This document shows positions 1-56,327 of a stretch of DNA of 64,000 bases, in pieces. The translations under genes and the position numbers were made by a program. The notes under the pieces are model-generated. The model was given only the letters and a program-made list of their open reading frames with translations. It did no database searches and was not told where the DNA came from. The DNA lies in NCBI RefSeq assembly GCF_002999335.1, contig NW_020312080.1, positions 44,607-108,606 of the forward strand, read 5' to 3'. This DNA is from Cyclospora cayetanensis (taxonomy: Eukaryota; Apicomplexa; Conoidasida; Eucoccidiorida; Eimeriidae). Positions within the stretch are counted from its first letter, which is position 1. Each line of letters begins with the position of its first letter.

Positions 1-762
1 TGCTAGCGCATGCTACGATTCACCGTTGGGGCCCTATGCTTTGAATGCTTCAGACGAAGTGTAGCCTTATGCCATGCGTCCACCATTCGCCCAGGAGATC
101 CATGACGAAACATTTTAAATCCCAGGTGCTTAGTACAATTGTCTCACCTTTCATCTGAGCTGAACACTTCTACGCTCCGTACACTTATTGCGATTGCATT
201 GGACTCTTCGTAGGGCCCTGCATGCCGCAACATGCCGACGCTTATTCTTCTTTTACTCACCAGCTAGGATTCTACTTGAAATCAGGCTAGGCTAGCTGGG
301 TAGCGCAGGTGCCAGTCTACCTGCTGCAGATTAACATAGCCGTTACCTAACAACCTTCCGTGCCTAGGTGCATGCATACATTTTAGTCCCTAGCCCCTAG
401 AGGTCCATTCCGTAGAGCTAATGACTTACGCAAGAAGTGCCTTAAACGCCATGACTGCAGCATCTCTAAGATAAAATTCTCAACAGCTCAGGCTCAATCC
501 ACAACCGATAACGAAATTGGCTGAAATCTCTTAACAAAAGCACCACAAAAACACTCTAAGCGCTGCACGCCAAGCGCCTAATCCTAGCCTTCGGTAAAGG
601 GTATAACCTAGCAGCATATCAGGTCGGAGCTTTCGGTGTGCCCGGTTTTGGCGCCGTCCATCACTCACTTCTAGACATAACCCATATCGCTATATCGTAA
701 TTGCGATTTCACGGCTCATGCAGCCCAGATGCATGGAGGATCTGCTGTGTGCATGAGCCTCT
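1..762. other. No supported gene; 3' flank of the SelS-like gene
   Basis: I see no convincing coding exon here. On the minus strand this is the downstream (3' UTR) side of the SelS-like gene, so a SECIS element would be expected here if the UGA at 769-771 is read as selenocysteine. I found only a weak hairpin candidate at about 677-720 on the minus transcript, with an AUGA and an opposing GA but an imperfect helix. I do not count it as support. Confidence 0.4.
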
Positions 763-1602
763 TTAGCATCAGCCACCGCCCCTTCGGGTTCTGCCATATC
801 TTTCTGCAGGGCTGGGCCTCCAGGGCTTGGGCTGGGTGGGAGGGGCTATCCCATGTCTCGAGATCTGCCCTCTGTGTTCCGGTCGAATGCCTCCGGTAGC
901 TACTGAGGAGGCCCTCTGCAGCTCAGCGTATGCAGGCGTTTCCTTAAAGGCCTCCATCTCCATCTCCAAGGATGCAGCCTGGCGCTCCCTGCAAGCTCAA
1001 TGCGCAGGCAGAAATTACAGCCACTTGAGCTGCCATCCTAAGACCGCCGCAGTGGGCCTTAAACAGGGCATCGCATAGCAGTAGTGCCCTCCTACCGCAT
1101 GTCTCAAGCCGGATACAAGGGCCTAGACTACAAAGCCTCTTTAGGGCAACGGCGAAAACAACGGCAGCTCCTGATTACGGATTTCCTGGCAGTTTGTGCA
1201 TCTTAACAGGTGCAGCTACTCACAAGGATAGACATGAATGCCACGTACCTGGCTTCACGCAGACGCTGGCGACGCGCTTCAGCCTCTTCCTTCTCGCGGC
1301 GATGTCCCCAGGCCACAGTTACTCTGCAAGATACCAAATATAACCAACAAAAACGACGATACAGGATGCACTGGAGCCCACAGTTCTCGGATAGCCATAA
1401 GGTGAGGAATCAAAGATGTCAGAAGCATCAGCCGCTAATTTACACACCTGTACAGAAGGAAGAGGATCACTCCTAGAAGAAGGGCCCCTGCAATGCTCCA
1501 AAAGTTTGCGCCGCTCAAAAGATCCCCATCTTGATTGTCGAATGAAGTTTTCCCAAAGGGATCCTCATCCCAGTCCATCGGGCTGTCATCTTCGCTATTC
1601 AT
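763..1602 (-). CDS. Selenoprotein S (VIMP)-like ER membrane protein, 3 exons, with candidate Sec UGA
   Basis: Exons on the minus strand are 1448-1602, 1249-1323 and 769-988 (763-988 if UGA is read through); both introns are GT-AG and all phases agree (2 and 2). The product starts MNSEDDSPMDWDEDPFGK, with an acidic N-terminus of about 33 residues. One membrane segment follows at residues 34-51 (FWSIAGALLLGVILFLLY), then a charged Glu/Arg-rich probable coiled coil at about 60-95, then a Pro/Arg/Gly-rich tail ending PWRPSPAERYGRTRRGGG. This order and the tail resemble selenoprotein S, an ER-associated-degradation membrane adaptor whose Sec is second to last. Here the Gly run is followed by TGA, TGC and TAA, so read-through would give a 151-residue protein ending Gly-Sec-Cys; termination at UGA gives 149. 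No convincing SECIS was seen, so Sec is inference. A non-selenium homologue is the alternative. Confidence 0.68.
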
Positions 1603-2303
1603 TGAGCCCTACGTGTAGCAGAGTTCATTGAGACAGCCATTGAATGGCGAAAGAGCCAGTGGCAGTTGCACCAGCGGATTGCAAGGTGCCTGTGCACTGT
1701 GTACTAAAGATGCTCAATGATGGGATTAAACAACACAGCAGTGGATATGCGTGGCAGGACAAAGGCACACAGCCACACTGTAACTGACAAGCAGCGATGG
1801 GTCATAACGAAGAGGCTGCCGAGATGGTCCAGCTAGTCGAACGCTAGACGCACGCGCACAAATTTCTAAGTGAGAAATGAAGAAGAGTATTCATTGGAAA
1901 ACGTTTGAATAGCGATGCTCCGATACTGTTGTCACCGTTGCAGGGGCTGCTGCATGCGCCTCCTCAGCGACAGGACCTACAGAAGCAGCCGCAACCGCAG
2001 CCGCGACAGCAAGTAATGCCACTGTGGCAAGGGTTTACTCTATATTTAAAGTGTGGACAAGATCCACGGCGTCTGGACTGCTCTGGTTCCCTCCTTACAC
2101 CCTCGGAACTCTTTGAGCCCCAACCCCCAAAGCGTGTATGCGGATATCGGCTCTCCGAGGTACGGCAGGCCAAACCACTTGGGGGCCGCTGGTCTCTGGA
2201 GACTAATTGGACGAAGAAGAGTGGCAAGGGAGAGAAAGTAGGAAAGCTAGCACTAGCGCGCTTCAAAGCAGCAAGAAGAAACCCCAACGGAAAAAATTGG
2301 CAA
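1603..2303. other. Divergent intergenic region between SelS-like and RBM-like genes
   Basis: This segment lies between two divergent starts, the minus-strand ATG at 1602 and the plus-strand ATG at 2304, so it probably contains both promoters and 5' UTRs. The plus-strand frame of the RBM-like gene stays open upstream from about 1905, with an in-frame ATG at 2016. The RBM protein could therefore begin earlier, but composition upstream of 2304 looks less like coding sequence. Confidence 0.35.
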
Positions 2304-5300
2304 ATGTCCCGCCGGCGAGCGGCCCCCAATGGGGCGGATGGGGCCGAGGACTTTAGGGAGCGCGAGCCCAAAGATATCCCGAGCAGCAGCAGTAGCAGTA
2401 GTAGTAGCAGCAGCAACAACAGGGGTGTCGGGCGCAGTTCTGACAAAAAGTCTGCTGGCCCCAACAGCAGTAGCACGAACAGCGGTAGTGGTAGAAACCG
2501 CAATTGGGATGAGTTAGGGGACTGGCAGCAACAGCACCGGCGGCGCAGCAGAAGTGACAGCAGAGGAGGGGACAGAGAGCGGCGTCCAAGAGAGAACGTG
2601 GATAAGGATCGATATAGGGAAAGGGACAGAGATAGAGAGCGAGAAAGGCACAGAGAGAGGGACCGAGAGAGAGAGCGAGAAAGGGATAGGGATAGAGATC
2701 GGGACAGGGAGAGGGACAGAGATAGAGACAGGGAGAGGGACAGAGATAGGGACCGGTCTCGTCGGCGGGATCGGTCTCGTGAGAGTGAGTGGGAGAGGTC
2801 TAGAGACAGAGACACGGAGAGCCGCAGCAGTAGGAAGAGGGAAGAGATCCTTAGTTGTACGGCTGTTATTCGAGGGCTACCAGAGGGGGTGACGGAGGAG
2901 GAGACGGAGGAGCACGTAAGGGCCTTAGCCATTGATAAGCGATTCTCGACGCCAGATGCTGTCCGCCTGCAGATGTTGAGTGTACTTGCACTCAACGCTC
3001 TTTGCCCCACCGGAGCTAGGCTTTCGCTGGATATGGTCCAGCAGCTGCTGCCTTCAGCAGGAACCACAGGCGGGAAGCATCAGGAGCAGCACGGGGAGAA
3101 GGAACAACAATTGTTGGTTGCCTTTGTGGACTTCCCGTCGACTGATGCAGCTCAAAAATTTCTGAAGAGCTGCAAGGGAGAGGTGTGCGGTATCAGAGGC
3201 AGACTCTGTCCCGTGACTGTGCTTTTACAGCAGCCGCAACAGGGGAGAGCAGCAGCCACCGAAGCTGCTGAAGCTTCACCTCCAGCAGATTGGATATGCA
3301 GCACGTGCGCAGCTCCCAATACCCGCAGCAGCGGTAGTATCAGCATGGCCTGCGTGTCATGTGGGGCCCTGGCCCCTGGAGGAGCATCCGAGAAACAGGA
3401 GACAGAAGGAGGATGGGGGGGGGAGGGCACTAGGAATCCGTCTTCGCTTGTTGTTGTCTCTGACTTGCTGCTTATCGAGTGGGAAGACCTACTGCGCTCG
3501 CTCAGGCGGAAGCTGCGGCGCCGCAGCAGTAGCAGCAGTAGCAGCGGACAACAAACCGAATTTCAGAGCACTGTGCACGTAAAAGACGCCCCGGGGACCC
3601 TCAGACCAGCCGCGTTTGGGATTTTGAAGTTTGCATGTACAGACGCAGCTAAAAGCGCATGGAGAGCCTTGCGCTCCCTTCGAGGATTAGATGTGGGGGG
3701 TCATTTGTGCGGCGTGAGGCCTTGGATAATGAGTAAAGAGGAAGAGAAAAGCTGGAGGGAGATGCTCATTGTCGCTGCTGCTGCTGCAGCTACGGCAAAG
3801 GCAAACTCAAACAGCAGCAAGAGCGGCAAAAACAGCAACGAACAGGTCTTCAATCTACAAGAAATGCGCGAAGTAGCAAGTTAGTCCTTCTGTTGTTGTT
3901 GCCGGTCTTGCTGCCACTGCTCTTGAGGGTGCTTTTGCAATTGCTGGTTCTACGATAGGCAGGAACGATGCTCTTAGCCAGTCACTGCAGCAGTGCCGAG
4001 TGGTTTGCTTTGGGCTGCAACCTCTACGTCCCTGCGTACTCACCTACATCTCTAGAATAATGTTCATATGCATATACATACACACATTTGTTTCATATAT
4101 GACACAAGAGTGCGTGCGAATGTGCAAATGCCTGCTTGTTGACGTGGGTTACTATAGAGCTATTTCACTCTGCTTCTTTGGTCGTGCAGTGACATGGGTA
4201 ACGCGGGATGTGCTGTTTGTTTCCATGCTGTACGAGCTTGTACTATGGGAGACGTGTGTCATATTTGTTTTTACTGCTTTCAGAGACCTCTTCATCATGG
4301 GGCCGTTTGCTGCAGCAATGCGAAGGACAATTGCTTCCACTTCTAGGAAACGAGCCGCCGTCTCTTCCCTCCCGGGACCCGCAAAGCGGATACTTGTTTT
4401 CTGCAGCAGCAGATCTCTACTTCGATCCTACTTCGTCGTACTACATGAACTCTGCCGGAGACTACTTTATACACGATACTGCTCTTTCTGCCCTTAGGCG
4501 TGTCTGCAATTACAGAGACAGAAAACTAGATGGAGATACAGACACACAGGACCAGCAGCTTCAACAGCAACAGCAACAGCAGCCCACAGCTTCTGTTGTC
4601 GCCTCGCTTGTCGCATCCGCGCAGCGCAGCGCGCAGGCCACCAAAGAGGCCATTGAGAAGGCAAAAACTACGGAGAAAAGAGGGCCGCTAGTTGAACCGC
4701 CTGCAACCGCAGCGGCTGCAAGTGCTGTCGCTAGTCAGCTTCAACAACACCAACAAAATATCCCTCCTCCGCCTCCTAGGGATCCCGCCGGGGGTGGCTT
4801 CTTAGATGGACCGGTGCCGCACATCACAATGCAACAACACTCTCAGCAGACGCAGCAGCAACAGCATACACCTAGGGGTTTCTCTACAGGGCCCCCAGGG
4901 GGCTTTGATGTGTCTCATCCACTACCTGGAGGTAGCCGGAACAGCGCTGGGGCCCCCCCTGTGGACGTAAGCGGAGCCTTCTTGCCTCCTGCTACAGCGG
5001 CTGCTGCTAGTGCTGCTCCTAGTGTAATTGCCGATGTGGCGAAGGTATTTGAGAGGAATTTGGCAGCAGCAGCAGCAGAAGACCTGAAGACAGCGGCAGC
5101 AGGCACTCCCGGGAGCTCACTGCCTGATGCCCTCCCCGCTGCTACTGGAGCCAAGAACAACAACAGCAGCAGTAACAACACGAACAATAACAGTAGTACT
5201 GTAAGGTTGACGCCAGCGGAGCCCCCAAAGTATTGCTTTGTGTGTCTTCGCGTATTTAAGACAAAGGCAGAGGTTCATGAGCACGAGCTGAACTCAAAGC

Positions 5301-5407
5301 TGCACAGGCAGAATGTCTTAATGCTGGAAAAGGGGAAAGAAGAAGAAACGAAATTGCACCTGAAGCAGTTGCAACAGATGCAGCTACTAAGACTCCACCT
5401 CAGCTAG
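2304..5407 (+). CDS. RBM5/RBM10-type RNA-binding splicing factor, 2 exons, no G-patch seen
   Basis: Exons are 2304-3879 and 4284-5407, with phase 1 at both ends and a polypyrimidine-AG acceptor at 4283, giving 899 residues. In order: a serine run and a long Arg-Asp/Arg-Glu tract (about 105-170); a divergent RRM (about 182-306); a RanBP2-type zinc finger at about 328-357 with the cysteine pairs CSTC and CVSC; a second divergent RRM (about 379-477); an OCRE aromatic repeat at about 559-592 (motif YFDPTSSYYMN); Gln/Ala/Pro-rich linkers; and a C2H2-type finger at about 842-867 (CFVC and a distal H-H pair). This order is characteristic of RBM5/6/10, alternative-splicing regulators that act in early spliceosomal complexes in the nucleus. 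Family members normally end with a G-patch; none is visible, because the frame closes about 30 residues after the finger. The start codon is uncertain, since the frame is open upstream to 1905. Confidence 0.8.
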
Positions 5408-12100: not shown

Positions 12101-13768
12101 GGCTACAGTTGCAAATCCTGAGTCGGGAATGAAGCGCCTGACTGGTAAGAGGGAAACAAAATCTTACGCTACTGTACGCACTGGCGTTTCAGCTTCATCT
12201 AATTGTTCATCAAATCCCTGTTGACAGCCTATTAGTGCCCATTGCCAAGTCTGCGTTGGTGCACATTGTTGCTGTTATCATGGCCGTTTCACTCTGCCTA
12301 GACTACACTGGGGGTGTCCTGCATTCCTGTCTACCTAGCTGTTTTCTCTGCACAGAGGATGACCAAATTGGTCCCCTGTTGTTCTGGCGGGTTTCTGAAA
12401 AAGCAGCGGAAGGCATGGCAATACCTACATATTCGGGATTTCACTCAACTGATTTTTACCAGCTGGTCGAGGACGCGGGAGCCTATGGCTTCGACAGCAG
12501 GGAAACTGCAGTAGACTTAGATATAGGTAGCCTGCCATCTTTAAATATATATATAGTTCCTCATGAGCTAAACGGTAGCAAGCATTTATCGAATGCAAAC
12601 CCTGTGTCAGCACCGCATAGCATCTCTGAGGGTTTTATATAGATGCTTGGTATATATCTGCGATATGCAAGTTTGGGCTGCGACTGCACATATTGGTCTG
12701 GTGCACAATTACCTACAGCACCTCTACGCCACTTTCCAAGACACCGTAGGCTTTACCATAAGGACGGACAAGGTGGTGGGGAGTTTGGGCGAAGTACATT
12801 CTCCTTTAAAACGAAAAGGGAAGCTTTCTTCAAACCTTCGAAACTGGTTAAGGTATATGAGCTAGTGCAGGGTCTACAGTGGGCCTAAAGCCCGGCACGA
12901 CGGGCAATGATGCGTTGTGTAAAAGGGAAGGCAATCATTCCTTAGTGCTTGGAAGGTTGCAGCGGTTAGAGCTTTCCCTGTTGAGACCCGATAGGATGTA
13001 CTACATCACGCGGCCAGCCTTTTGCAAATCAGAAATTCGCGGCTCCTCTACAGCCAAGTTCTGAGTTGGAATTCGCCAAGCCAACAGGGTTTTGAGTACA
13101 GCTAGAAAGCCGGCACTTGTGCGGAAGAGCGCCGGGAGACTATTGAATGTAATTCTTATCGCACGCTTCAGGGACTTGACTGAACTGAGAGGCCAACCCT
13201 GGTTTCTCATTGGACTGAGCACCGACTCCCGCCTATAAAAAGATAATTCCCAGTATTACGTATGTCAGGCATACCCATCGAGAAATGTTAAGCTGGAGGT
13301 AGGTTCTCTAGAGCGCGCGTGGCCCGCACTGAAGTCAAATTGATCAAGGGTCAGGCATGCCCACAAGCATACCCCTTCTCTGAAATCATATGGGGAATAG
13401 CAAGCACTGAGCAAACTTGGCTGTTTTCGAGGTGGTCGCAGTCTTCAAGGCTACTTTAGGGCTCAAGTGAATGTTGAGGAGTGAGGTGGGGCCTGGTCCT
13501 GTGTTTCGGGCTGCAGCCGACAGGCAGTAAGTGACCTCGTGCGATTCCTTCTTTTGTTTACAGATCCTTCTGTTTCTTTATAAGTAAGACCATTATTGAT
13601 AGGTTAGCTAGTATATTTTGCAACAAAAATACGGGCAATGCGAACGGGTTCACACGAGGGAATCGCAGCCGCCGGTCAGAGGACTGCCACTTTTTGCTGT
13701 CGCGTTGGGCAGCAATAATGATTCTGTACAGAACCTTCTGTTCCTGACATTCTGAAACAGACAGTCTA
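9141..13768. other. 4.6-kb region without a supported gene
   Basis: Only short open frames lacking recognisable domains or convincing splice structure are present. A short TA dinucleotide run occurs at about 9335-9353. The region 12.2-12.9 kb has open frames on the plus strand with a vaguely RNase H-like stretch (GFTIRTDKV), which I do not regard as sufficient for a call. 5' exons of the CFAP65 gene could lie in the right end. Confidence 0.35.
9335..9353. repeat. TA dinucleotide run
   Basis: A short uninterrupted alternating T-A stretch with no other association. Confidence 0.9.
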
Positions 13769-16700
13769 ATGGAAAAACGTACTGCTCTAAGTTCCGGGGG
13801 AACCAATGACCCTGGAGACCCCCATAGGTCCTCCTCAAACTGCTTCAAGGAATGGTCAGAGAAATTGGCCCATTTAGGAATTGAGTGTTTGCCCGAGCTT
13901 TGCTGGAGCCAGTGGAGTGCTAAAAAAGATCTAGAGAAGCAATTGATTGTTAAAAATGTGGGTTTAAAGCCCTGCACACTATGCTTCCGGCCACCACAGA
14001 GTCGCTGCTTCTTTCTTCCCTTGCCTGTGGCCCGTAAGATCCCCCCCGGCATCACTTGGAGCATTCCCGTGACATTTAGGCCACATTATAATGATTCTTT
14101 TGAGGATATACTCGAGATAATAACTGAAAATGGCTGCTTTGATATCGTGCTAAGGGCCAAAAGCAACGAATTAGCTCTCTCTATTATTCCACTGTGCGTC
14201 GAATTTGGTATGGTGGCCATTGGAAGAAACGCAAAAGAAAAGCTGACAGTTCGAAACACGGGGTCTGTAGACGTAATTGTAAAGTGGAGAGCAGTGGCCC
14301 CCTTCTCTATTATACCTGAGATTTTCTCTCTTCCAGCACGCGAAAGTACCACTTGCAAAGTTACCTTTAGGCCAGCCGCGCCATGCACGTACACTGCGAC
14401 TGCGGTGTGCGAGATGTTATTGCCTCTCAAGGAGGCTGTTAAGACTCTTTGTTGTACCGAATGTCACTCTGCCCCACCCCGTACAAGCGAATCAATCGTT
14501 TCAACAGGCCTATTTGAAGCTGCATCCCCGAACGAAAAGCTAAAGGTTGTGGAAGGAGAAGGGACAAGCCAGATTGCAAAGTCCTATACCTTGCAGTTTA
14601 CCGGATCCGGAAAGATCCCTCTTCTCCTTCTCGGAGGCAAAACCACGGAAATTCTAGATTTCGGCGAGCTGATGCCTGGAGAGATACAAACAAAAACCGT
14701 GACGCTCACAAACACCTCGCCGGTCCTTGCTGAATTCACGGTACATATCTTGCACTGTAAATAACTCTGAACACCTGAACTCGGCTGTGACCATGTAGCC
14801 TGGTTGATATGCATGAGCCGCTGTTTCCGGTGTGGGTGTGAGTATGTATATGTATATGTATACACGTATGTGTGTGTGTGCCCCTAATACCTAACCAGAT
14901 AGAAGAGAAAGCGTTGGCTTCTTCTACGCCGGTTGACGGTAGGACCACTGCTGCAATTTCCGTGTTTGTGGACAGCTACTCCATCCCACCCCTCGGGTCG
15001 CAGCAGATTGTGGTGCGAGTTTGCTCCCAAAATATATACGAGACACTCCGCGCCGTCTACCAGGCACGTTTATTCCTTAATTTTTTTTGTTAAGATGCAC
15101 GCCTAAAAATCTAGGTTTTCAGCTATTGACAAAACAGGCAGTTCAAGTAAGTTCCTTTTGACCTAGTTTCTAGTGAATCGTAAAGTCCGGCATTTGGTAT
15201 TAAAGAGGTTTGGGATACTGGATGATGCTTGGCGACTCCGTAGATCAAGTGCAGCATTGGCTGCTCCCCAAATTTGGTCGTTGAAGGCAAGGTCAACCCC
15301 TTAAAGATTTTCTTCAAGAACAGTTTTGTGACATTCGGAGACCTGAAGATGCACACGAAGGTGGGCCATATGGCTTATGTCCGTACTAGGTGATCCTGAA
15401 AAGCCTAGCCTTACAAAAATCTTCTCGTGTGCGTTTGCTTTACAGGGCAGGCAATTGCATGGCTACTTGATTGTTGTAGAGATATTTTAAATGTATCTAT
15501 ATAGCCCTCAAAGCTCACCTAGTGCCCTAAATATCCATTCAGGTTTTATTTATAGAGTTCAGCGGTGCTTGGTTCGAGGTTGGGCGGTTGTGTTTTGCTT
15601 CGACGCAAGAACAGGCGACTCGGGTAGTTGAGCTCGTAAACGCCTCCTCAGCCCCAGCAGTGTTTTGTTTTCCTTCGCTACACCCTGAGAGCATTCTACA
15701 GCTGAACAAGAGATCTGGGATCGTTCCTCCCAAGAGCTTCGTCCAGCTGTCGCTTTCCCTCGACCTTAAAAGCCCCTGCTCCTTCTATCACAGGGCCTAT
15801 TGCCTTGTTAAAGGAGGCCCACACCCGTTGCCCCTTGACATCGTCGCTACCTGTTTCTCCAACTCTGAATACCCCGCCAGAATCACAAAAGGTCACATCA
15901 TCCTGCAAGAGTATGCCACAGTTCGTCCGATTACCTATTCTGGGTTAAGTAAAAACGGGATTAGGTAATGTATGGGGCACTAGTTCTGAGAGTGCAATCG
16001 GTTGGAGGAAGAGATCCAGCGTGCAGGACTTGACTAGGCAGGCTTTGTGGTGTAGCACCTGGCAACTTAGCTTAAAACCTCACTCATACGGCACACAGGA
16101 ATAACACATGGATTCTCCTGTGATTGCAGGTGGCGGTTATTCAGCAAGAAAAGCCTGGCACCAGGTTAGAGCCGTGTGTGTTATGTTTTGTCCCCTTGAG
16201 TGCAGACGCCTCCCATCGTGCAGATAGCTAAAGGGCAGCCTACGCGCATGGCAGCGCATGTCCATATGCAAGTTTACCCTGTGGTAGAGGTGAAAACGGC
16301 TTAGGCTTCAGGCTATAAGGTTATGCTTGCAGACCGATACAGATTTGACACCCTGGGACTCCCCATTGATGTTCCCCTTCCCGTGGTGTCGCCTTCCAGC
16401 CGTATCCTCGAGGCAGCAGATGGATTCCCCCACCACAAAAGGCAAGTCACTCTTCGCTCAGAAGCATCCAAATATGCGTGTGAATACAAAGAGTATTAGC
16501 AGCTTTGGCACAAGTCTTCCTTATGTCCTATATCATGCTTGCTTGCACTGGAGTAAATACAGAATCGCCGTCCTGAGCTGTTCAAGTCTAAAGTTCAAGA
16601 CACCGGGGTCCTCACTGCCTGTGGATATTATTAACAACACCAATCAACCAGTAAGCCGTACAAGTAAATGTACAGCTCTATTCTACAGCTTTTCATCCAA

Positions 16701-19700: not shown

Positions 19701-22700
19701 TTAGTGTTCGGATTCAAAGTTATCCTGGTGTATGTTCAGTTGATTATACAAAACCCAACAGTGGCTGAAGTGCGCTATCGCGTGGCATGGGAATGCATTT
19801 CTGTTGAAGAGCCCCCAGAAAAGTGCCGAGGGCTCATGCAGATGCAGGCGGAGCGGGATCTTGCTGCGGCTGCTGAATTGTGTACACACACAAGGGTGTT
19901 GCATGCCAGATGCAGCAGCCGCCTCCAGTTCGCTGTCACTTGCCTTCTTCCCCAGCCCTTCCAGTTAAGGTTTTCGCTCGTCTATGACGACGAAACGGTA
20001 GACCAAAAAGCAGTGGACCTCGCTAGGGCACCCGCTGACACAAAACTGCACTTCCAGCAGCAGAAGCAAGAGACCTTAAGGCTGTACGCACAAAAAAAGT
20101 CTTAGTCCAAGGACCTTTCTGTAAAACGCCCCCATTACGCAAGCAAGCAACTTGTGGATGGGAAGAGCCTTCCTCTTTGCTGTGTTTCTATATGCTGTTC
20201 TTGCTGCATCTAGCAGCACCTCTAAACTTGCCCTTTTTGCGCCCCTATACCCTACCGAATGCTCTCTTCTCCACTTACCTCGCAGTATTCTTTTGTTTAT
20301 TCATGCAACTTTTGTGTTCTGCTGTGATTTTCATGAGTGTCTCTAAATATCTTCTTCTGCACGAGAACAGGCCTGTCTGCCTACTCTGTCGGGAAGCGCA
20401 CTCGCTTGATTTTCTCTCTTGCCTGTTTTACAGGGACGTATCTTCTCCTCTGTGCACTTTCCTTGTAAGTGGAGTTGGAGACATCCCTCGCGTGCTGTTG
20501 GCCGACGTTCGGTCGCTGTCTGGATGGGAAGCTCCATTCTCGCTCTGGCAGCACTTCCAGGCAGTCCAAATCAACAAGTAATCATGAGACAATAGTGCAC
20601 AAACCACATTTTCCAATACTGTGCCTTATAATTTAGCCTCTAGCTTTACATTTTGTAGACAAATAGCTGCAGAAAACTTGGCATTTGGATGCGCAGGTAT
20701 CTTTCAGATGACTTGACCTATGCGGACTTGCAGTTTGTGTCTTCGGACGGCTTGCTTGGGCGGCGTAAAGCCCTTTCCTTGCTGCCCACTGTAAGCTGCT
20801 ATTGTGGCTTCCGCTTCCCCCGTGTGGGATACGTTGACGGCAACCCTGGAAGGGGCACCTTGGTTCAGAAACGTCTCCTTCTGACCTTTTTCAACCCAGG
20901 ACCAACCACTGCTGAGCTCCGCGTTCTCACAGACAAATACTTCCAGGTCCCCTCGTTCCCTTCATGGATGAAAGGAAAATCCGTGAGATGTATCACCTCA
21001 TCCTAAGATGTAAATTTTAAGTTGTAGAGCTAAAATTCTACGACGCTGGACTTTGGAACTGTCTGGCCGATCTGTGTACCGGGAGGTATCAAGTACTCTA
21101 CGGAGACCGATAATGTCGTTCCCTAAGACGTTTAGAGGTTATGGTCTGATGCGTTTTCTTGGCTTGAAAAGGAAAGCTTTGGGAGGTCGCGGGTTTTGGT
21201 GAAGCCTTCTTCCTTGAGACTTCCTCCAAAGGGATACAGGCAGATTTTGGTGGAACTTTTCCCCCAGCTCCCAAGTAAAGAAGCCCCTACAGACGCTCAT
21301 GGAACTCACACTGGCTACAGCATGGCTCGCGATGACGCAGAAGAGGATACAGATGTGCCATTAGTGCTACAGGTGGCCCAGGGAAAGGCTGTGCGATTGC
21401 TCTTGAGGACTGGAGGTCTAAATCCCAGGACTCCTCTCCTCTATGCTCCTCCAAGTATTCCAGTGAGATACCGTAGCATCTCCCAAGGAAATATGGATAC
21501 ACAATAAGTTTTTCTCAAGCTTCAGGAAGACTAACTGCACATACTAACAACCAGCTGGAACCTTAGGGTAATGGTATGAGGAACTAGTGCCTAGGCCTTA
21601 CGCCGTTTGGCTCAATGTACTGATTTTTGCTTTGCGCTTGTGATCCGCGGTTCCAGCTGTCAGCTGCGCGTATTGAAAGCTCGCAGGGCTGCTTGCAATT
21701 AATTGAGCTGCGAAATGAAAGTGAAGTACCTCTTCAATGGTGGCTGCCCCCAGCTATCTGCGCAGCGGCTGGTTTTATGAACAATGGAAGGCCGCTGCTT
21801 CGATTTTACCCTTCTGAGGGCTTTTTGGGTCCCCTCTCTGCTGCCTACCTACTTGTGTCTCTAACCCCTTCCATGGCCGCACAGTACACAGTTCCTATTG
21901 AGGTACAGTACAAAGAGACAGAAAAAGAGGAAACCGAACTCAAAACTCTCTCTTTCTGTGTCTCGTTCACGGGATGTAAAGATGCATCGCAAAAGGCATG
22001 TGAGGATTCAAAAATTAAAAAAGCGGAAGATGAATTGTACTCACTACCCATCTCAGCAGCTCCCAATGCAAACGTGCCTCTCCCTCTCAACGCAAAGCTT
22101 TCCCGAGAGAGAATCGCCTTCCCCCCCCGGCCATTCCGGTGAAATCTGTTCTGTCGGCATTCTTGCATAGGCATGCTTCTTACCCGTAGCTTTGCTCCTC
22201 TTTTCGTATGTTTCATCTCCCTTTGTCATTCTCCTCATTTTTGGCATCACCTTTATCGTGTTTGATGTACATTTGATAAAATTCGCCAGACCGTTTACGA
22301 TCCTTACCAGTTGCGTCAGATACATGATTGGCAACCCTGTTTGGCTGTGATTTCTTCTGCTTCATGCTCATGCTTCTCATTGGTCTTCTGCCTCTCTGCT
22401 TTATCTTTAAACTGGGTTCCAAAGCTGCTCTCTCAGCGTATATCTTCCTTTGGGGCCCCATTTCGTTTCCATTCTTTTTTTCCTCTCATTTTGCATCGCT
22501 CTCTTTGCCACAGTAGCAGTCCATCTGTCGCTTTTTGTCAGTGTTTCATGCCTCTGCAGGTCCAGTGTGCATAGCCTCACTGCTCTCTATAACAACCACC
22601 CCTCCAAGACTTTGGTCTTTTCGTGGAACCTATCTTGCCCTGTCCTTGCAGCCATAGCCCTTGATGTTACTCCCTTGAAAGGTATGGCACAAGAAGTAAG

Positions 22701-44662: not shown

Positions 44663-44862
44663 AATTAAACCCTACACTCTGTTCAACAGCTCCAGATGCA
44701 ACTCAAGTGTGAGATTGCTGCTCAACTTTATACTCAAGGAAGGACAAAAAGGGGACCTTTGTCCCCCTAAAGTTTGTGCACATATGTAGCGGCCCATAAC
44801 CTGCAGACAAACTCCAGAAGGTACATCATAGGGCCTTGTCGCGCAAGGACGTGAACCAGGCC

Positions 44863-45906
44863 ATGATGACGTGGCCGGGTGGAGGGGTATTTGCTGCATC
44901 CAATCCGGGGCCTGGAGAGCCTGACAAGGACACAGCCAGTGCAGTTTTTGCTCTGACAGCGACAGCAGAATCAGTCGATGAAGCACCAGTAACGACATCT
45001 TTTAAGGAACCAGTGGCTCCCCTCGATTCTTCCTCCCTGTTGCCAGCACATCTCGAGGAAAAAACGCTAGTAGCAAGCCAGAAGGGGCTCCCAGCCCCAG
45101 CCGACAGGGGACCACAGGGGGCTACCCGTAGGAGGGCCTCAAGCCCAGGCCTGTTAGTGCCTTGCTCAGCCAAGCTGAGATCTCGCTCCAACTCCCTTAG
45201 TCCTTCTCCGAGTCGGAGGAGGCGGAGAGTCACCACCGCCAACAGCAGCGTATGTAAGATAAATGTAGGACCTAAGTTTCAGGCCCCTTATCTGCCTCCC
45301 TTCTTCCTGACTGCCGACGAGGGGGAATCATCACTGTCTGCCGAAGACCTGGAAGCGCCCGCCTTGGACATCGAGGGAGAGAGCCCCAACGGACCGAGGC
45401 TGGTTTATTCAGCAGGCGCACTGCTGCGTGTTGCTGCTGCACGGACCGCGGCGGCAGCAACAGTCCAGGAGGGAAGCACAACAGGCTGCGGAAAAATCTG
45501 TACAGGATTGTCTCAGGCTGCGGATTTAGGTTCCTTCGTGGGCAGCGAAGAGGATTTGGACCGCTACTTAGCTCATGCAGCCGCCTCTTGGGCTCCCTCT
45601 GCGGGGTCTAAGGTCCGGGAAGGCCTTCCTTTCTCTCCAGAATTTGCACTTCAGCTGCTGCATGTGGCAGATTATAATCCGGAGAAAGCTTTGAATTTGC
45701 TACGTCAGCCAGGATTTAACCTTCAGAAGGTGTGTGAGGCTCCCCTGAGGCGCTACGACAATAAGTGGCGACCCAAAGACAGGAGAGGGCTCGTGTCGGG
45801 GGTGCCCTATCCTCCGGCTCAAATCTTAAAGACCTACGTTCACAGGTGGCATCGGCATAAGCAAGAAGGAAGTCACAGTGAGGCCCTGTACAGGGCTGGG
45901 GGATAG
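44863..45906 (+). CDS. ELM2-domain chromatin co-repressor-like protein
   Basis: One open exon encodes up to 347 residues from ATG 44863; ATG 44866 follows directly. The frame is also open upstream to an in-frame stop at 44797, so a 5' exon is possible. After a low-complexity Ser/Pro/Arg-rich N-terminus, residues about 132-147 read INVGPKFQAPYLPPFF, which matches the beginning of ELM2 (pattern I.VG..YQA.IP). Residues about 257-281 read FSPEFALQLLHVADYNPEKALNLL, the ELM2 C-terminal helices. ELM2 is found in MTA, MIER and RCOR proteins, where it recruits histone deacetylases in nuclear co-repressor complexes, usually followed by SANT. Here about 110 residues are inserted between the two ELM2 halves and no SANT is visible before the stop. 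A GT donor near 45847 (after ...KTYVHR) could lead to further exons, so the C-terminus is uncertain. Confidence 0.72.
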   Translation: MMTWPGGGVFAASNPGPGEPDKDTASAVFALTATAESVDEAPVTTSFKEPVAPLDSSSLLPAHLEEKTLVASQKGLPAPADRGPQGATRRRASSPGLLVPCSAKLRSRSNSLSPSPSRRRRRVTTANSSVCKINVGPKFQAPYLPPFFLTADEGESSLSAEDLEAPALDIEGESPNGPRLVYSAGALLRVAAARTAAAATVQEGSTTGCGKICTGLSQAADLGSFVGSEEDLDRYLAHAAASWAPSAGSKVREGLPFSPEFALQLLHVADYNPEKALNLLRQPGFNLQKVCEAPLRRYDNKWRPKDRRGLVSGVPYPPAQILKTYVHRWHRHKQEGSHSEALYRAGG

Positions 45907-52668: not shown

Positions 52669-53899
52669 GTGAGCAGGGCTGTTGTAGATGATGCAGCCGC
52701 TGGTACAAAAATGTCTACCCTTCCGGATGCGGCTCCTGCTAGTTATGTGGAGGGCTGTCATGGATGGAAGGCAATCTTCTTTCATTCATGGTAATGGTGT
52801 AGGTGCTGCAGCGACACGGCGCTTGTTGCAGCAGATGGCAGACCAGTGGTCACCTTCTAAGTGGATGAAGGAGCTCTCCCTGACCACGTATCCTCCTTTC
52901 TTTCCTTCCCCCGCCTTTAATTGGATCCGACAGTAAGCGAACACAGAGTGTGTATGGGCCCAAAGGATGGAGCTCTAGGCAGCAGCACGAGAATACTGGA
53001 AGTTTGAATCTTAAATGTACCTCCACTGAGGCCCCCGTCCCTGTATTAATTTTGCACGAGATAGCAGGTGCACAAGATTGTTATTTCAGTCTGCAACAGC
53101 TGCCTTTTGTTGCCGGTCGCCGTGCCTCTTCATCTCGAGCTTGCGCCAGGCCTCAACGGGCAGCTGACCGCCTACGTGTCCTGCGGAGAAAAATCCCAAA
53201 ACATTTGCTCCTTTCTGTCAGCCCGGAAGCTCAGCTCATTTTCTTATTACATAACGATAAGAAGATTCTTCCCATGGGGTTGTTGCCGCTGCCGCTGCTG
53301 TGGTGCTGCTGGGCCTCTTTGCGACCGCAGTAGCAGCAGCAGTACAACAGCAGCACCGGCTACTATTGGTGTAGAACAAGGGTTTCCCATGCTCCCGCGC
53401 ACTCTGGCTGAGATATGAAATCTCTTTTTAGTGTTGTACAAGTACACAACGGCCAGACACTTGCGTATTAAGACATTTGTATAGGATTTAGGCTTCGGCC
53501 TCCCTTTCCGTCCAAGTGTTCCCCTTACGTCACTATCTACCAGTAGTTCCTTCTCAAGCACTCCGATGGCAACGGCTGACATTGCGTCATTTCCCGGTGC
53601 TAATTCTCAAGACTCAGAGTATCGTGGGGCTTCGCAGCTCCGTGACTGAGGAGAGCGGAAAACATATGAGAACCGCAGCAAGACGAACACAAGTTCCAGC
53701 ATTTGCACAAGTACCACTGTCAGCCTCCTCAGCAGAATCATCCACACAGAAACAACAGACACCGCAGAAAAAGCAACGGTGACAGAAACAGCGACAGCCA
53801 TAGGGCGGCAACAACACTGCTGCAGCCACAGTAGTAGCACCATCAACAGGAACCGTTACATCCAACGAGTGAGGCGCCGGCAGCCTGAGGCTAAGCAGG

Positions 53900-56327
53900 A
53901 TGACAGAGGCAAGGCCGGATTCGTCAGTGGGCAGTGCAGCTTTGTCTTCGCCTGCAGTGGCACCACCTGAAGCCGCAGCAACAGCTGCTGCAGAAGGAGA
54001 GGGAGTCACAGAAGGGGAAGCAGTGCCTCCTGAATTTGAGTGCTCGATTTGTATGAAGATTCTCATGCTTCCCGTAACGACTCCTTGCGGCCACAACTTC
54101 TGCCGGTCGTGCATTGAGCAGGTACCGCTGCCGCTGGTATTGCTGGTGCTGTGGTTAGGTCGATGGACCAGCCGCTCCTGTTGCGAGTGCTGCTGCTGCT
54201 ACTTTTTCAGGCCTTTTATTCACTGCAACAAACGTGAACGTGGTATTCCGTTCTTCTGGCTTTCCCATATATTGCCACGGCGCAATTTTAAGCTGTTGTC
54301 GCTGATGCTGCAGGCACTGATCTACCGGCCAATGTGTCCGCTGTGTCGAGCCCCTCTGCTGTACTGCACGTTACCTGAGGGGGCACCAGGCGGCCACGGA
54401 GGAAGAACAACCCTTCGAGTTAACACACTGCTTCAGCAGCTACTTGAGGCTCAGTATCCACAGATGATGGCGAAGAGATTGGCGGACGCTGCTGCTGATG
54501 CTGTTAGAACAGCTGCTAACGAATCCACTAGGACTGAAGGAGAAGCTGACCAGCAGCAGCAGCAGATGCAGATGCTTCCTCTCTTCTTCGCGATGGGTGA
54601 ACAGCTTCAACGTCAAATGAGGCAGCAGCAAGTGTACAGGGGCCCCGGAGCCCTTCAGACCTGTCCACTCATGCCGGGGGAGAAGATGGTGCTGCACATA
54701 CACGAGCAGCGGTACATACACCTCGTGCAGCTTGCACTGCAGGTCAGTGCCGCAGCCTTTTGTTGCCTTTACTGCTGATATCGTCGATCTTTGGTGTAAC
54801 TTGTGATAGATATCGATGGTTTAGAGCTAGCAGTTTCGTGTTTTACGGTGTGCTGTGCCAGGGATCTCACCACTTTGGCATAATCCTGCCTCCTGTGGAG
54901 CAAGCGGCGGTGGGAATCCGTCTGCCTCAAACTCCAGGGCGCAACAGGGGGGCGACAGAGTTTTCAGGAGCAGCAGGAGCATCGCCGGCAGCTGCATCCA
55001 GGGTTGAAGAACTCGACGCATCGGAGGATGTCGGTGTGTTTGGGTGCTGCGTTGAGATCGAGCAACACTCGCTGGCCCCACCGAATCTTGATGAAAGGGC
55101 TATTGGAGCCTGTCTTATTCGGTGCGTCTGCAAGAACCGGTTTAGGCTTGTTGACATCATGCTGCCACAGGATGAGCAGCAGCAGCAGCAGCCGCTTGAA
55201 ACGCTACTTGCAGCAGCCGTTGCCTCACCTGATTTCAGCGTGGGGGCTTGCTACCCCGTTGTAGACGCCCCTCTCATCCCTCCGCCGCACTCAGCTGGTC
55301 AAGCAGCGACACCAGCAGCACCACACGCAGCAACTGCAACAGCCAACGATAGTGAGGAGGCCCAGCACCAGGAGCTCCACTATGCTCGAGCAACAGCAGA
55401 GGAGTGGTCACGAAATCCTCTATCCAGATCATCAAATCTGTCTGATGAATTTGCCTCGGTGAAAGCACTGTTAATGAGGGATCATGGCGGGGAGGATTCT
55501 GCAGGGTCTTCAGGGACCCTTTCGTTGGATATTAGACTAGCGGCGGCCCGCAGATTGTGCGAGATTTGTACAGAGGGGCTAAGCAGGTGAGGAGTATATT
55601 TCGTTCGTCTGCTGTGCCTATAAGGTAGTGTTGCTGATCCAGATCATCAAAGTTGTTCGAGAATTTTGCCGTAGTACAAGAGCTGTCAGTCAGAGATTCT
55701 GGCCGGGAGGCTTACGTAGAGTCTTCAGGGGCCCACTCACTGGAGATTACACTGGCAGTGACACTGCTTTGTGCAGGTTTTTATTGCTGAGGCCGTGCAG
55801 CACATCCGCAGCTGGCTGCTCACACTGACTGTTGACTGCTTTAGTTGTCATTCCTTCTGTTCCTCTATAACGCGTTGCCTTCTTTATTTTTCCCACTGGT
55901 GTGGATGCAGGCAACTCGCCCAGGGAGGTACTGTTGCGCAGCGCCTCTTCTCAGCGAAGTATGGCAGAGTGCCGACTATGCCAGAACGGGTAAATCCAGG
56001 ATTAAGCGCGCATGACTTTAGGACTCGTATTAAAGGATCTTGGAAATACTGCTGCGTCTGAACACCCCTGTAGCTGTACCATGCAAACACAAGGTCTAGG
56101 CTTGGCCACAGGTTGCAGCATTGTTCCCCCCCGCTTCTGGCCTTCTTGAACATCCCTGAAAGTCAAATCGTTACTCTGTAGAATTTCTCTGTACGATTAA
56201 GGAATCGGGCTCTACGGTTTGTATGTGCAGATGACGGCGGACCAGTTGGTAGCTTTCTCTTTCTTCTTCTGCAAGGTCGTAGTGGCAACAAGTCCTGTGA
56301 CGAGGTGGCAGTGGTACCTCTCAACGG
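53900..56327 (+). CDS. RING-LON (LONRF-like) E3 ubiquitin ligase, multi-exon
   Basis: Firm exons are 53900-54121, 54314-54742 and 54862-55586. Further segments are near 55777-55818, 55911-55989 and 56231-56327. An in-frame TGA just upstream supports ATG 53900. A C3HC4 RING lies at residues 48-85 (CSIC, then CGHNFCRSC, then after the first intron CPLC), binding zinc and the E2 enzyme. A LON substrate-binding domain follows: MPGEKMVLHIHEQRYIHLVQ, HHFGIILPP, FGCCVEIEQ, KNRFRLVDI, then alpha-helical C-terminal pieces (VFIAEAVQHIRSWLLTL, VAQRLFSAKYGRVPTMPE, MTADQLVAFSFFFCKV). RING plus LON is the LONRF arrangement, a cytosolic ubiquitin ligase family; no TPR repeats are seen. The junction between exon 3 (phase 2) and the VFIAE segment (phase 0) is unresolved and coincides with a tandem duplication. 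The terminal exon beyond 56327 was not identified. Confidence 0.82.
55423..55575 (+). repeat. Diverged tandem duplication, unit 1 (end of RING-LON exon 3)
   Basis: The DNA from TCCAGATCATCAAA to TTGTGCGAGATTTG recurs about 215 bp downstream with many substitutions. The frame encodes SSNLSDEFASVKALLMRD and onward. Confidence 0.75.
55638..55790 (+). repeat. Diverged tandem duplication, unit 2
   Basis: This unit starts TCCAGATCATCAAA, retains GATTCTG, TCTTCAGGG and TTTGTGCAG blocks in register with unit 1, and remains open in the equivalent frame (SSKLFENFAVVQELSVRD onward). It carries a usable acceptor (GATCCAG at 55637-55642) that is in phase with the exon 3 donor. Confidence 0.72.

What the first reader, a model, noticed from the sequence alone, without database searches (positions are those of the whole stretch)
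763..1602. Candidate selenoprotein S with UGA followed by one Cys codon and UAA
The hand-spliced three-exon gene has SelS architecture (acidic N-terminus, one membrane helix, charged coiled coil, WRP...GRxxRGGG tail). Its frame reaches TGA exactly where SelS carries selenocysteine, then TGC and TAA. From memory, Toxoplasma and Neospora use selenoproteins with unusual SECIS elements (GGGA in place of AUGA), so a lineage-specific SECIS could be hidden in the 3' flank at 1-762. I saw only a weak hairpin.
Basis: partly seen in the sequence, partly recalled or inferred. Interest (0 to 1): 0.85.

Follow-up and report, generated by a model that had tools for sequence, protein, structure and literature searches.

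The report
Unannotated SelS-like selenoprotein in Cyclospora
A small membrane protein gene of the human gut parasite Cyclospora, annotated as ending at a UGA stop, most likely reads that UGA as selenocysteine, so its true tail would carry a selenium-sulfur pair; this is a known kind of selenoprotein, apparently overlooked in this parasite, with an unusual tail.

Summary
A three-exon minus-strand gene (1602-763) encodes 149 residues, then TGA (771-769), TGC, TAA. The 149-residue part is identical to an annotated Cyclospora cayetanensis "transmembrane protein"; three Eimeria orthologues are conserved up to the Gly run. The layout is SelK/SelS-like: one membrane helix, a long helix, a disordered Gly/Pro/basic tail, UGA as second-to-last codon. 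Sequence profiles do not place it in SelS proper. The genome decodes selenocysteine: tRNA-Sec(UCA), SepSecS, EFsec and SelD pieces are present, and its SelT carries an in-frame TGA in CVSUG with a strong AUGA-type SECIS. PSTK was not found; SBP2 was not searched. In this gene's 3' flank lies a modest SECIS candidate (675-607): UGAU/UGAU quartet in a GUGA core, AAAA bulge, mini-stem. Rfam SECIS_1 aligns to it end to end, but at 12.7 bits, far below its cut-off of 35; by my arithmetic about 0.006 by chance for the flank's sense strand. It is GUGA-type, not the GGGA guessed. Verdict: probable unannotated SelK/SelS-family selenoprotein ending GGG-Sec-Cys, whose only Cys is next to the Sec.

The parts
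1448..1602 (-). exon 1: acidic N-terminus and membrane helix
   Evidence: Kyte-Doolittle maximum at residues 37-55; helix 28-92 in the AlphaFold2 model
1249..1323 (-). exon 2: charged long helix
763..988 (-). exon 3: end of helix, WRP...GRTRRGGG tail, TGA, TGC, TAA
769..771 (-). in-frame TGA, proposed selenocysteine codon (residue 150)
   Evidence: the annotated protein P0001 ends just before it
766..768 (-). TGC, Cys codon 151, the only Cys of the extended protein
   Evidence: no Cys in the 149 residues before
763..765 (-). TAA, proposed true stop
607..675 (-). SECIS candidate: helix I, GUGAU (664-660), helix II GGACGGCGC (659-651) with GCUCCGACC (630-622), bulge CAAAAC (650-645), mini-stem CGG-GCACA-CCG (644-634), UGAU (621-618)
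   Evidence: descriptor hit, the only one in 762 nt; Rfam SECIS_1 positions 1-64 of 64, 12.7 bits against a gathering score of 35; pairs listed

Best explanation
The gene encodes a 151-residue SelK/SelS-like selenoprotein of Cyclospora cayetanensis. UGA 771-769 is decoded as selenocysteine by tRNA-Sec(UCA) and EFsec, steered by a type II SECIS of GUGA class at 675-607 in the 3' untranslated region, and translation stops at TAA 765-763. Shown: gene structure, the UGA-Cys-stop order, a SECIS-like fold, the machinery genes named, and a UGA-containing SelT gene in the same genome. Inferred: Sec insertion itself, that the mRNA reaches 607, ER-membrane placement with a cytosolic tail, and a redox role of the tail. 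Because the protein has no other Cys, the Sec can pair within the chain only with the neighbouring Cys (a vicinal selenenylsulfide), or must act with a partner protein.
For: UGA at the second-to-last codon after a Gly run, as in SelK/SelS homologues (family features from passages of PMC10650576). Residues K131 to G149 are identical in the 4 eimeriid sequences except position 136. tRNA-Sec 72.3 bits, cut-off 47, called tRNA-SeC with anticodon TCA by ARAGORN. SepSecS in 4 exon matches, one reading DKNFLTPVGG. EFsec 37.8 bits, cut-off 27, with a nearby frame holding GHVDSGKT and KERGITLDLGFS. SelD pieces with a FDPQTSGGLL frame nearby. SelT with CVSUG, TGA inside an otherwise open frame; its 3' flank gives exactly one descriptor hit in 1461 nt, 9 of 9 helix II pairs (43 of 2000 random 762-nt sequences had any hit, none with 9 of 9), fold z -3.53, Rfam SECIS_1 28.1 bits, E 0.0029. 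For this gene: one descriptor hit in 762 nt, with UGAU/UGAU quartet and 6 helix I pairs; of 4000 random sequences 148 had any hit, 61 one with helix I of 5 or more, 15 also 3' TGAN, 3 also 3' TGAT. Rfam SECIS_1 aligns end to end in the same register; E 8.4 over 4227 families is about 0.002 for the one family in 131 nt, about 0.006 for the 762-nt sense flank (arithmetic).
Against: The SECIS is weak: 12.7 bits, cut-off 35; no Rfam match at the gathering score in the window, none at E up to 10 in 1-1000, none genome-wide for SECIS_1 at E up to 10 (which also missed the SelT element). Fold energy is unremarkable, z -0.53 and -0.52. Helix II has A.A and C.U mismatches and a third non-standard pair in the Rfam alignment. 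A stricter descriptor had no hit in this flank; the descriptor was loosened after the candidate had been seen, and only its use on SelT was blind. A covariance model built from SelT alone did not pick it. PSTK was not found, SBP2 was not searched. A UGA that simply is the stop also explains the annotation and the Eimeria proteins. No transcript or protein data.
Confidence: 0.84

Rival explanations
1. The UGA is an ordinary stop; TGC-TAA and the hairpin behind it are chance. The product is the annotated 149-residue membrane protein.
For: The annotated Cyclospora protein ends there and the three Eimeria proteins end in the Gly run. The SECIS score is weak.
Against: The genome decodes Sec, with SelT as a second UGA gene. 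UGA sits where SelK/SelS carry Sec, and the conserved tail would end with no redox residue: P0001-P0003 have no Cys at all. Annotation is known to miss Sec: PMC3628699 says most of the SelS sequences it collected did not include the Sec (passage).
Confidence: 0.12
2. UGA is read by near-cognate decoding, or Sec insertion is vestigial: a former selenoprotein that is losing its SECIS.
For: Helix II mismatches and low SECIS_1 score beside the strong SelT element.
Against: The quartet and the A-rich bulge agree with the SECIS_1 consensus, UGA has not become a Cys or TAA codon, and human SelS, a working selenoprotein, also has a weak SECIS (passage in PMC3628699).
Confidence: 0.04
3. The protein is a selenoprotein of a separate apicomplexan family (such as the Sel1-Sel4 of apicomplexan parasites named in PMC3473315), convergent with SelS rather than related. 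This shares the mechanism of the best explanation; its odds overlap with it.
For: No SelS match by profile or pair; homologues found only in Eimeria (one search scored only the 7996 candidates sharing most words).
Against: Layout, WRP and Gly/Arg tail agree with SelS; SelK and SelS themselves lack significant similarity (passage in PMC10650576).
Confidence: 0.25

Closest known systems
Selenoprotein S (SELENOS/VIMP)
   Same: acidic N-terminus, one membrane helix, long charged helix, disordered tail with WRP, GR and Gly, Sec codon second to last (human sequence recalled)
   Different: no significant sequence match; no Cys before WRP, where human SelS has Cys174, proposed to pair with Sec188 (PMC3628699, abstract and passages); here the only Cys follows the Sec; tail ends Sec-Cys, human Sec-Gly (recalled)
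SELENOK/SELENOS-like family
   Same: single N-terminal membrane helix, Gly/Pro/basic tail, Sec codon second or third from the C-terminus (features from passages of PMC10650576)
   Different: Sec itself unproven; SECIS weak
Toxoplasma/Neospora selenoproteins with GGGA SECIS (recalled, Novoselov and others 2007; not read)
   Same: coccidian Sec decoding
   Different: both Cyclospora SECIS seen here have a UGA core: AUGA in SelT, GUGA in this gene
GUGA-type SECIS of some algae and sponges
   Same: GUGA_AA primary pattern (passage in PMC3473315)
   Different: apicomplexan host

Membership tests
SELENOK/SELENOS-like family | single membrane helix in the N-terminal region | tested here: met
   Kyte-Doolittle maximum 2.29 at residues 37-55; helix 28-92 in the model, mean pLDDT 69.7
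SELENOK/SELENOS-like family | Gly-rich, Pro- and base-rich disordered tail | tested here: met
   tail PKPWRPSPAERYGRTRRGGG; block pLDDT 49-55 over residues 111-149
SELENOK/SELENOS-like family | Sec codon second or third from the C-terminus | tested here: met
   UGA is the second-to-last codon; this tests the codon's place, not its decoding
SELENOK/SELENOS-like family | SECIS in the 3' untranslated region | tested here: inconclusive
   candidate 675-607, 12.7 bits to SECIS_1, cut-off 35; descriptor hit; no hit by the stricter descriptor; transcript end unknown
SELENOK/SELENOS-like family | Sec actually inserted | not testable with these tools
   needs mass spectrometry, Se labelling or a reporter
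Selenoprotein S proper | match to a SelS profile in Pfam (PF06936, accession recalled) | tested here: not met
   not among the families matched by any of the 4 members of A1 at E up to 5
Selenoprotein S proper | Cys before WRP that pairs with Sec | tested here: not met
   no Cys in P0001-P0003; the one Cys of P0004 is at 47 in the membrane helix
Selenoprotein S proper | p97-binding VIM motif RX5AAX2R (recalled) | tested here: not met
   0 of 4; a near form with six residues of spacing (REARERQAASLE in Cyclospora) is in 4 of 4
Sec-decoding genome | tRNA-Sec with UCA anticodon | tested here: met
Sec-decoding genome | SepSecS and EFsec | tested here: met
Sec-decoding genome | SelD (SPS) | tested here: met
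   two exon matches, 40.4 and 25.4 bits, below the whole-protein cut-off of 125, exons being scored apart; FDPQTSGGLL frame nearby
Sec-decoding genome | PSTK | tested here: not met
   TIGR03575 gave no candidate at E up to 1; introns or divergence may hide it
Sec-decoding genome | SBP2 | not tested
   no query made

The most novel reading that the evidence does not exclude
Eimeriid coccidia carry a SelS-type selenoprotein in which the resolving cysteine has moved from before the WRP motif to the residue after the Sec, so that the tail ends in a vicinal Sec-Cys pair at the very C-terminus. The membrane protein would then be a self-contained two-residue redox switch, present only when UGA is recoded, with selenium supply setting the ratio of switchable to redox-dead protein.
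Probability: 0.4. Interest if true: 0.65.

Novelty: new member of a known kind. Interest (0 to 1): 0.5.

Why it matters
It would give Cyclospora cayetanensis at least two selenoproteins (this one and SelT). I found no paper on Sec use in Cyclospora or Eimeria themselves in the listings (titles and starts of abstracts; one search listed 15 of 19). It would correct gene models: the Cyclospora protein is cut at the UGA, and two Eimeria SelT models lack the CVSU stretch. The Sec-Cys terminus would be a simple natural test of how SelS-type tails work without the Cys174 partner of human SelS.

Tried and rejected
GGGA-type SECIS in the flank: none by descriptor. First loose scan of 3000 nt of 3' flank: 7 hits, the candidate first by energy per base. 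Stricter descriptor, with AA directly at the end of helix II and at most 2 mismatches: no hit in the flank. SelK: one weak match, E 0.135, below the cut-off; by eye it overlaps an intron of a glutaredoxin-like gene (motif recalled) and reads as no SelK, dropped as chance. SelT/SelW by Pfam Rdx: no candidate, yet SelT was found with a protein query, so that negative was false; the same may hold for PSTK. Whole-genome Rfam SECIS_1: 0 matches at E up to 10, also missing the SelT element. MAFFT alignments of the two SECIS did not keep both strands in register (3 of 484 flank settings kept both quartet ends by my test, and by eye none of the 3 kept helix II in register), so no joint model was built. 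A one-sequence model from SelT did not recover the candidate. A wrong coordinate made alignment A3 meaningless; replaced. NCBIfam and Pfam matches of the SelS-like proteins that were listed with cut-offs are all below them and were ignored, as were two that 4 of 4 members show weakly: GspM, best E 0.0008, and Ctr, best E 0.012. PDB searches: nothing with the single sequence at E up to 1; with the profile the best of 6 was E 0.52, ignored. A TGA inside one SepSecS match follows DKNFLTPVGGALIYGPAPE and by eye looks like a splice donor, not a Sec codon.

Full report
What is there. The window is contig C45:44607-108606 of a 43.2 Mb genome. The gene lies on the minus strand: exons 1602-1448, 1323-1249, 988-763, introns of 124 and 260 nt with GT...AG ends. 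The 149 residues before the TGA are 100% identical to a Cyclospora cayetanensis protein named 'transmembrane protein', which names the organism and confirms the hand-made splicing. After RRGGG come TGA (771-769), TGC (768-766) and TAA (765-763).

Relatives. A search of about 5.8 billion proteins gave 4 hits at E up to 10 among 178 candidates: itself and one protein each of Eimeria media, E. intestinalis and E. stiedai, 148 residues. A profile search gave the same 4, with only the 7996 candidates sharing most words scored. The Eimeria proteins end in GGGGG. The alignment has 80% mean column identity, and the tail KPWRPxPAERYGRTRRGGG is invariant but for one position. Eimeria DNA was in no collection open to me, so I could not see which stop codon they use.

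Shape. A hydrophobic maximum lies at residues 37-55. The AlphaFold2 model (4 sequences, mean pLDDT 69.7, pTM 0.28) has helices 28-92 and 95-107, and a low-confidence tail from about 110 with two short helices.

Does this genome decode Sec? Yes on most counts. tRNA-Sec scores 72.3 bits (cut-off 47); the other 6 of 7 hits of that search are below the cut-off and are tRNA-Ser by ARAGORN. SepSecS has 4 exon matches; one reads DKNFLTPVGG. EFsec has 37.8 bits (cut-off 27) and a nearby frame with GTPase motifs. SelD has two exon matches and a FDPQTSGGLL frame. PSTK was not found; SBP2 was not searched.

A second UGA gene gives the yardstick. The frame reads ...QLCVSUG... and runs on to TAA; with Cys for the TGA it matches TIGR02174 (SelT/W/H) at E 0.0043, 17.3 bits, below the curated cut-off of 34.2. 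Two Eimeria relatives, 72% and 67% identical to the downstream part, lack the CVSU stretch in their gene models, each cut differently, as expected if annotation went round an in-frame stop. The SelT 3' flank has one descriptor hit in 1461 nt, 211 nt after the stop: AUGA core, 9 of 9 pairs in helix II, AAA, mini-stem; of 2000 random 762-nt sequences 43 had any hit and none had 9 of 9. Fold z is -3.53 and Rfam SECIS_1 gives 28.1 bits, E 0.0029 over 4227 families, itself below the gathering score of 35.

The SECIS of the gene in question. The same descriptor has one hit in the 762-nt flank, at 664-618: G-UGAU, helix II GGACGGCGC/GCUCCGACC with 7 of 9 pairs, CAAAAC bulge, CGG-GCACA-CCG mini-stem, UGAU, and 6 helix I pairs (two of them G.U) across a 7/6 internal loop. 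Among 4000 first-order random sequences of the same length, 148 had any hit, 61 one with helix I of at least 5 pairs, 15 also a 3' TGAN, 3 also a 3' TGAT. In the window, both strands, there are 8 hits including this one; it is the only one with 3' TGAT. I wrote this descriptor after seeing the candidate, and a stricter form misses it, so these rates flatter it; its use on SelT was blind. Rfam SECIS_1, which I did not tune, aligns 675-607 from position 1 to 64 in the same register, 12.7 bits, E 8.4 over 4227 families in 131 nt. That is about 0.002 for this family alone, and about 0.006 for the sense strand of the flank. The 131-nt stretch was chosen because the candidate lay in it; over 1-1000 nothing reached E 10. 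The score is far below the gathering score of 35. Energy alone is unremarkable, and a model from SelT alone misses it. GUGA_AA cores are on record in some algae and sponges (passage in PMC3473315), and human SelS is reported to have one of the weakest human SECIS (passage in PMC3628699).

How it probably works. Ribosomes reach UGA 150; SBP2 (not searched), bound to the element whose core UGA lies 108 nt on, brings EFsec with Sec-tRNA; Sec and Cys are added and TAA ends the chain. When selenium or factors are short, the 149-residue form results. That form has no Cys in Cyclospora or in two of the three Eimeria orthologues, and one Cys inside the membrane helix in E. stiedai. So all Cys/Sec redox capacity of the Cyclospora protein would sit in the last two residues. 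In human SelS a Sec188-Cys174 bond is proposed (PMC3628699, abstract); here the only partner in the chain is the next residue. A vicinal Sec-Cys ring is possible, by analogy with the Cys-Sec end of thioredoxin reductase (recalled), but nothing here shows it.

Novelty. I found no report of selenoproteins in Cyclospora or Eimeria in the held library, judged by titles and starts of abstracts: 'selenocysteine' with 'Cyclospora' gave 3 papers; with 'Eimeria' 19, of which 15 were listed; 'selenoprotein', 'coccidia' and 'selenocysteine insertion sequence' gave 2; 'selenoprotein', 'Toxoplasma', 'SECIS' and 'Eimeria' together gave 0. Most subscription papers are not held, so this is weak evidence of absence.

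Noticed in passing
L020:1198-1983 (contig C378, around 20194-20637): Cyclospora SelT with CVSUG and in-frame TGA, with a strong AUGA-type SECIS 211 nt after its stop. Eimeria magna and E. intestinalis gene models (P0005, P0006) lack the CVSU stretch.
   Followed up: yes
L021 (contig C90:229000-238500): SelD-like frames are preceded on the same strand by a frame with an oxidoreductase-like ILIIGGGAVGVEMAL stretch (by eye); possibly a fused oxidoreductase-SelD protein.
   Followed up: no
window 1881-5407, + strand: Neighbouring frames with RS-like repeats, a weak RRM match and a weak OCRE match, both below Pfam cut-offs; perhaps one RBM5/RBM10-like gene, on the opposite strand to the SelS-like gene and pointing away from it.
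   Followed up: partly
window 13748-14764, + strand: Frame with HYDIN/CFAP65-type Ig domains (PF22544, E 3.3e-16), a flagellar protein kind.
   Followed up: no
window 44800-45906, + strand: Frame with an EELM2 domain (PF15863, E 8.4e-38).
   Followed up: no
window 53873-54778, + strand: Frame with a RING finger (PF13923, E 8.5e-8).
   Followed up: no
G000, whole genome: No PSTK by TIGR03575 despite the other Sec machinery found; either divergent, split by introns or replaced.
   Followed up: partly
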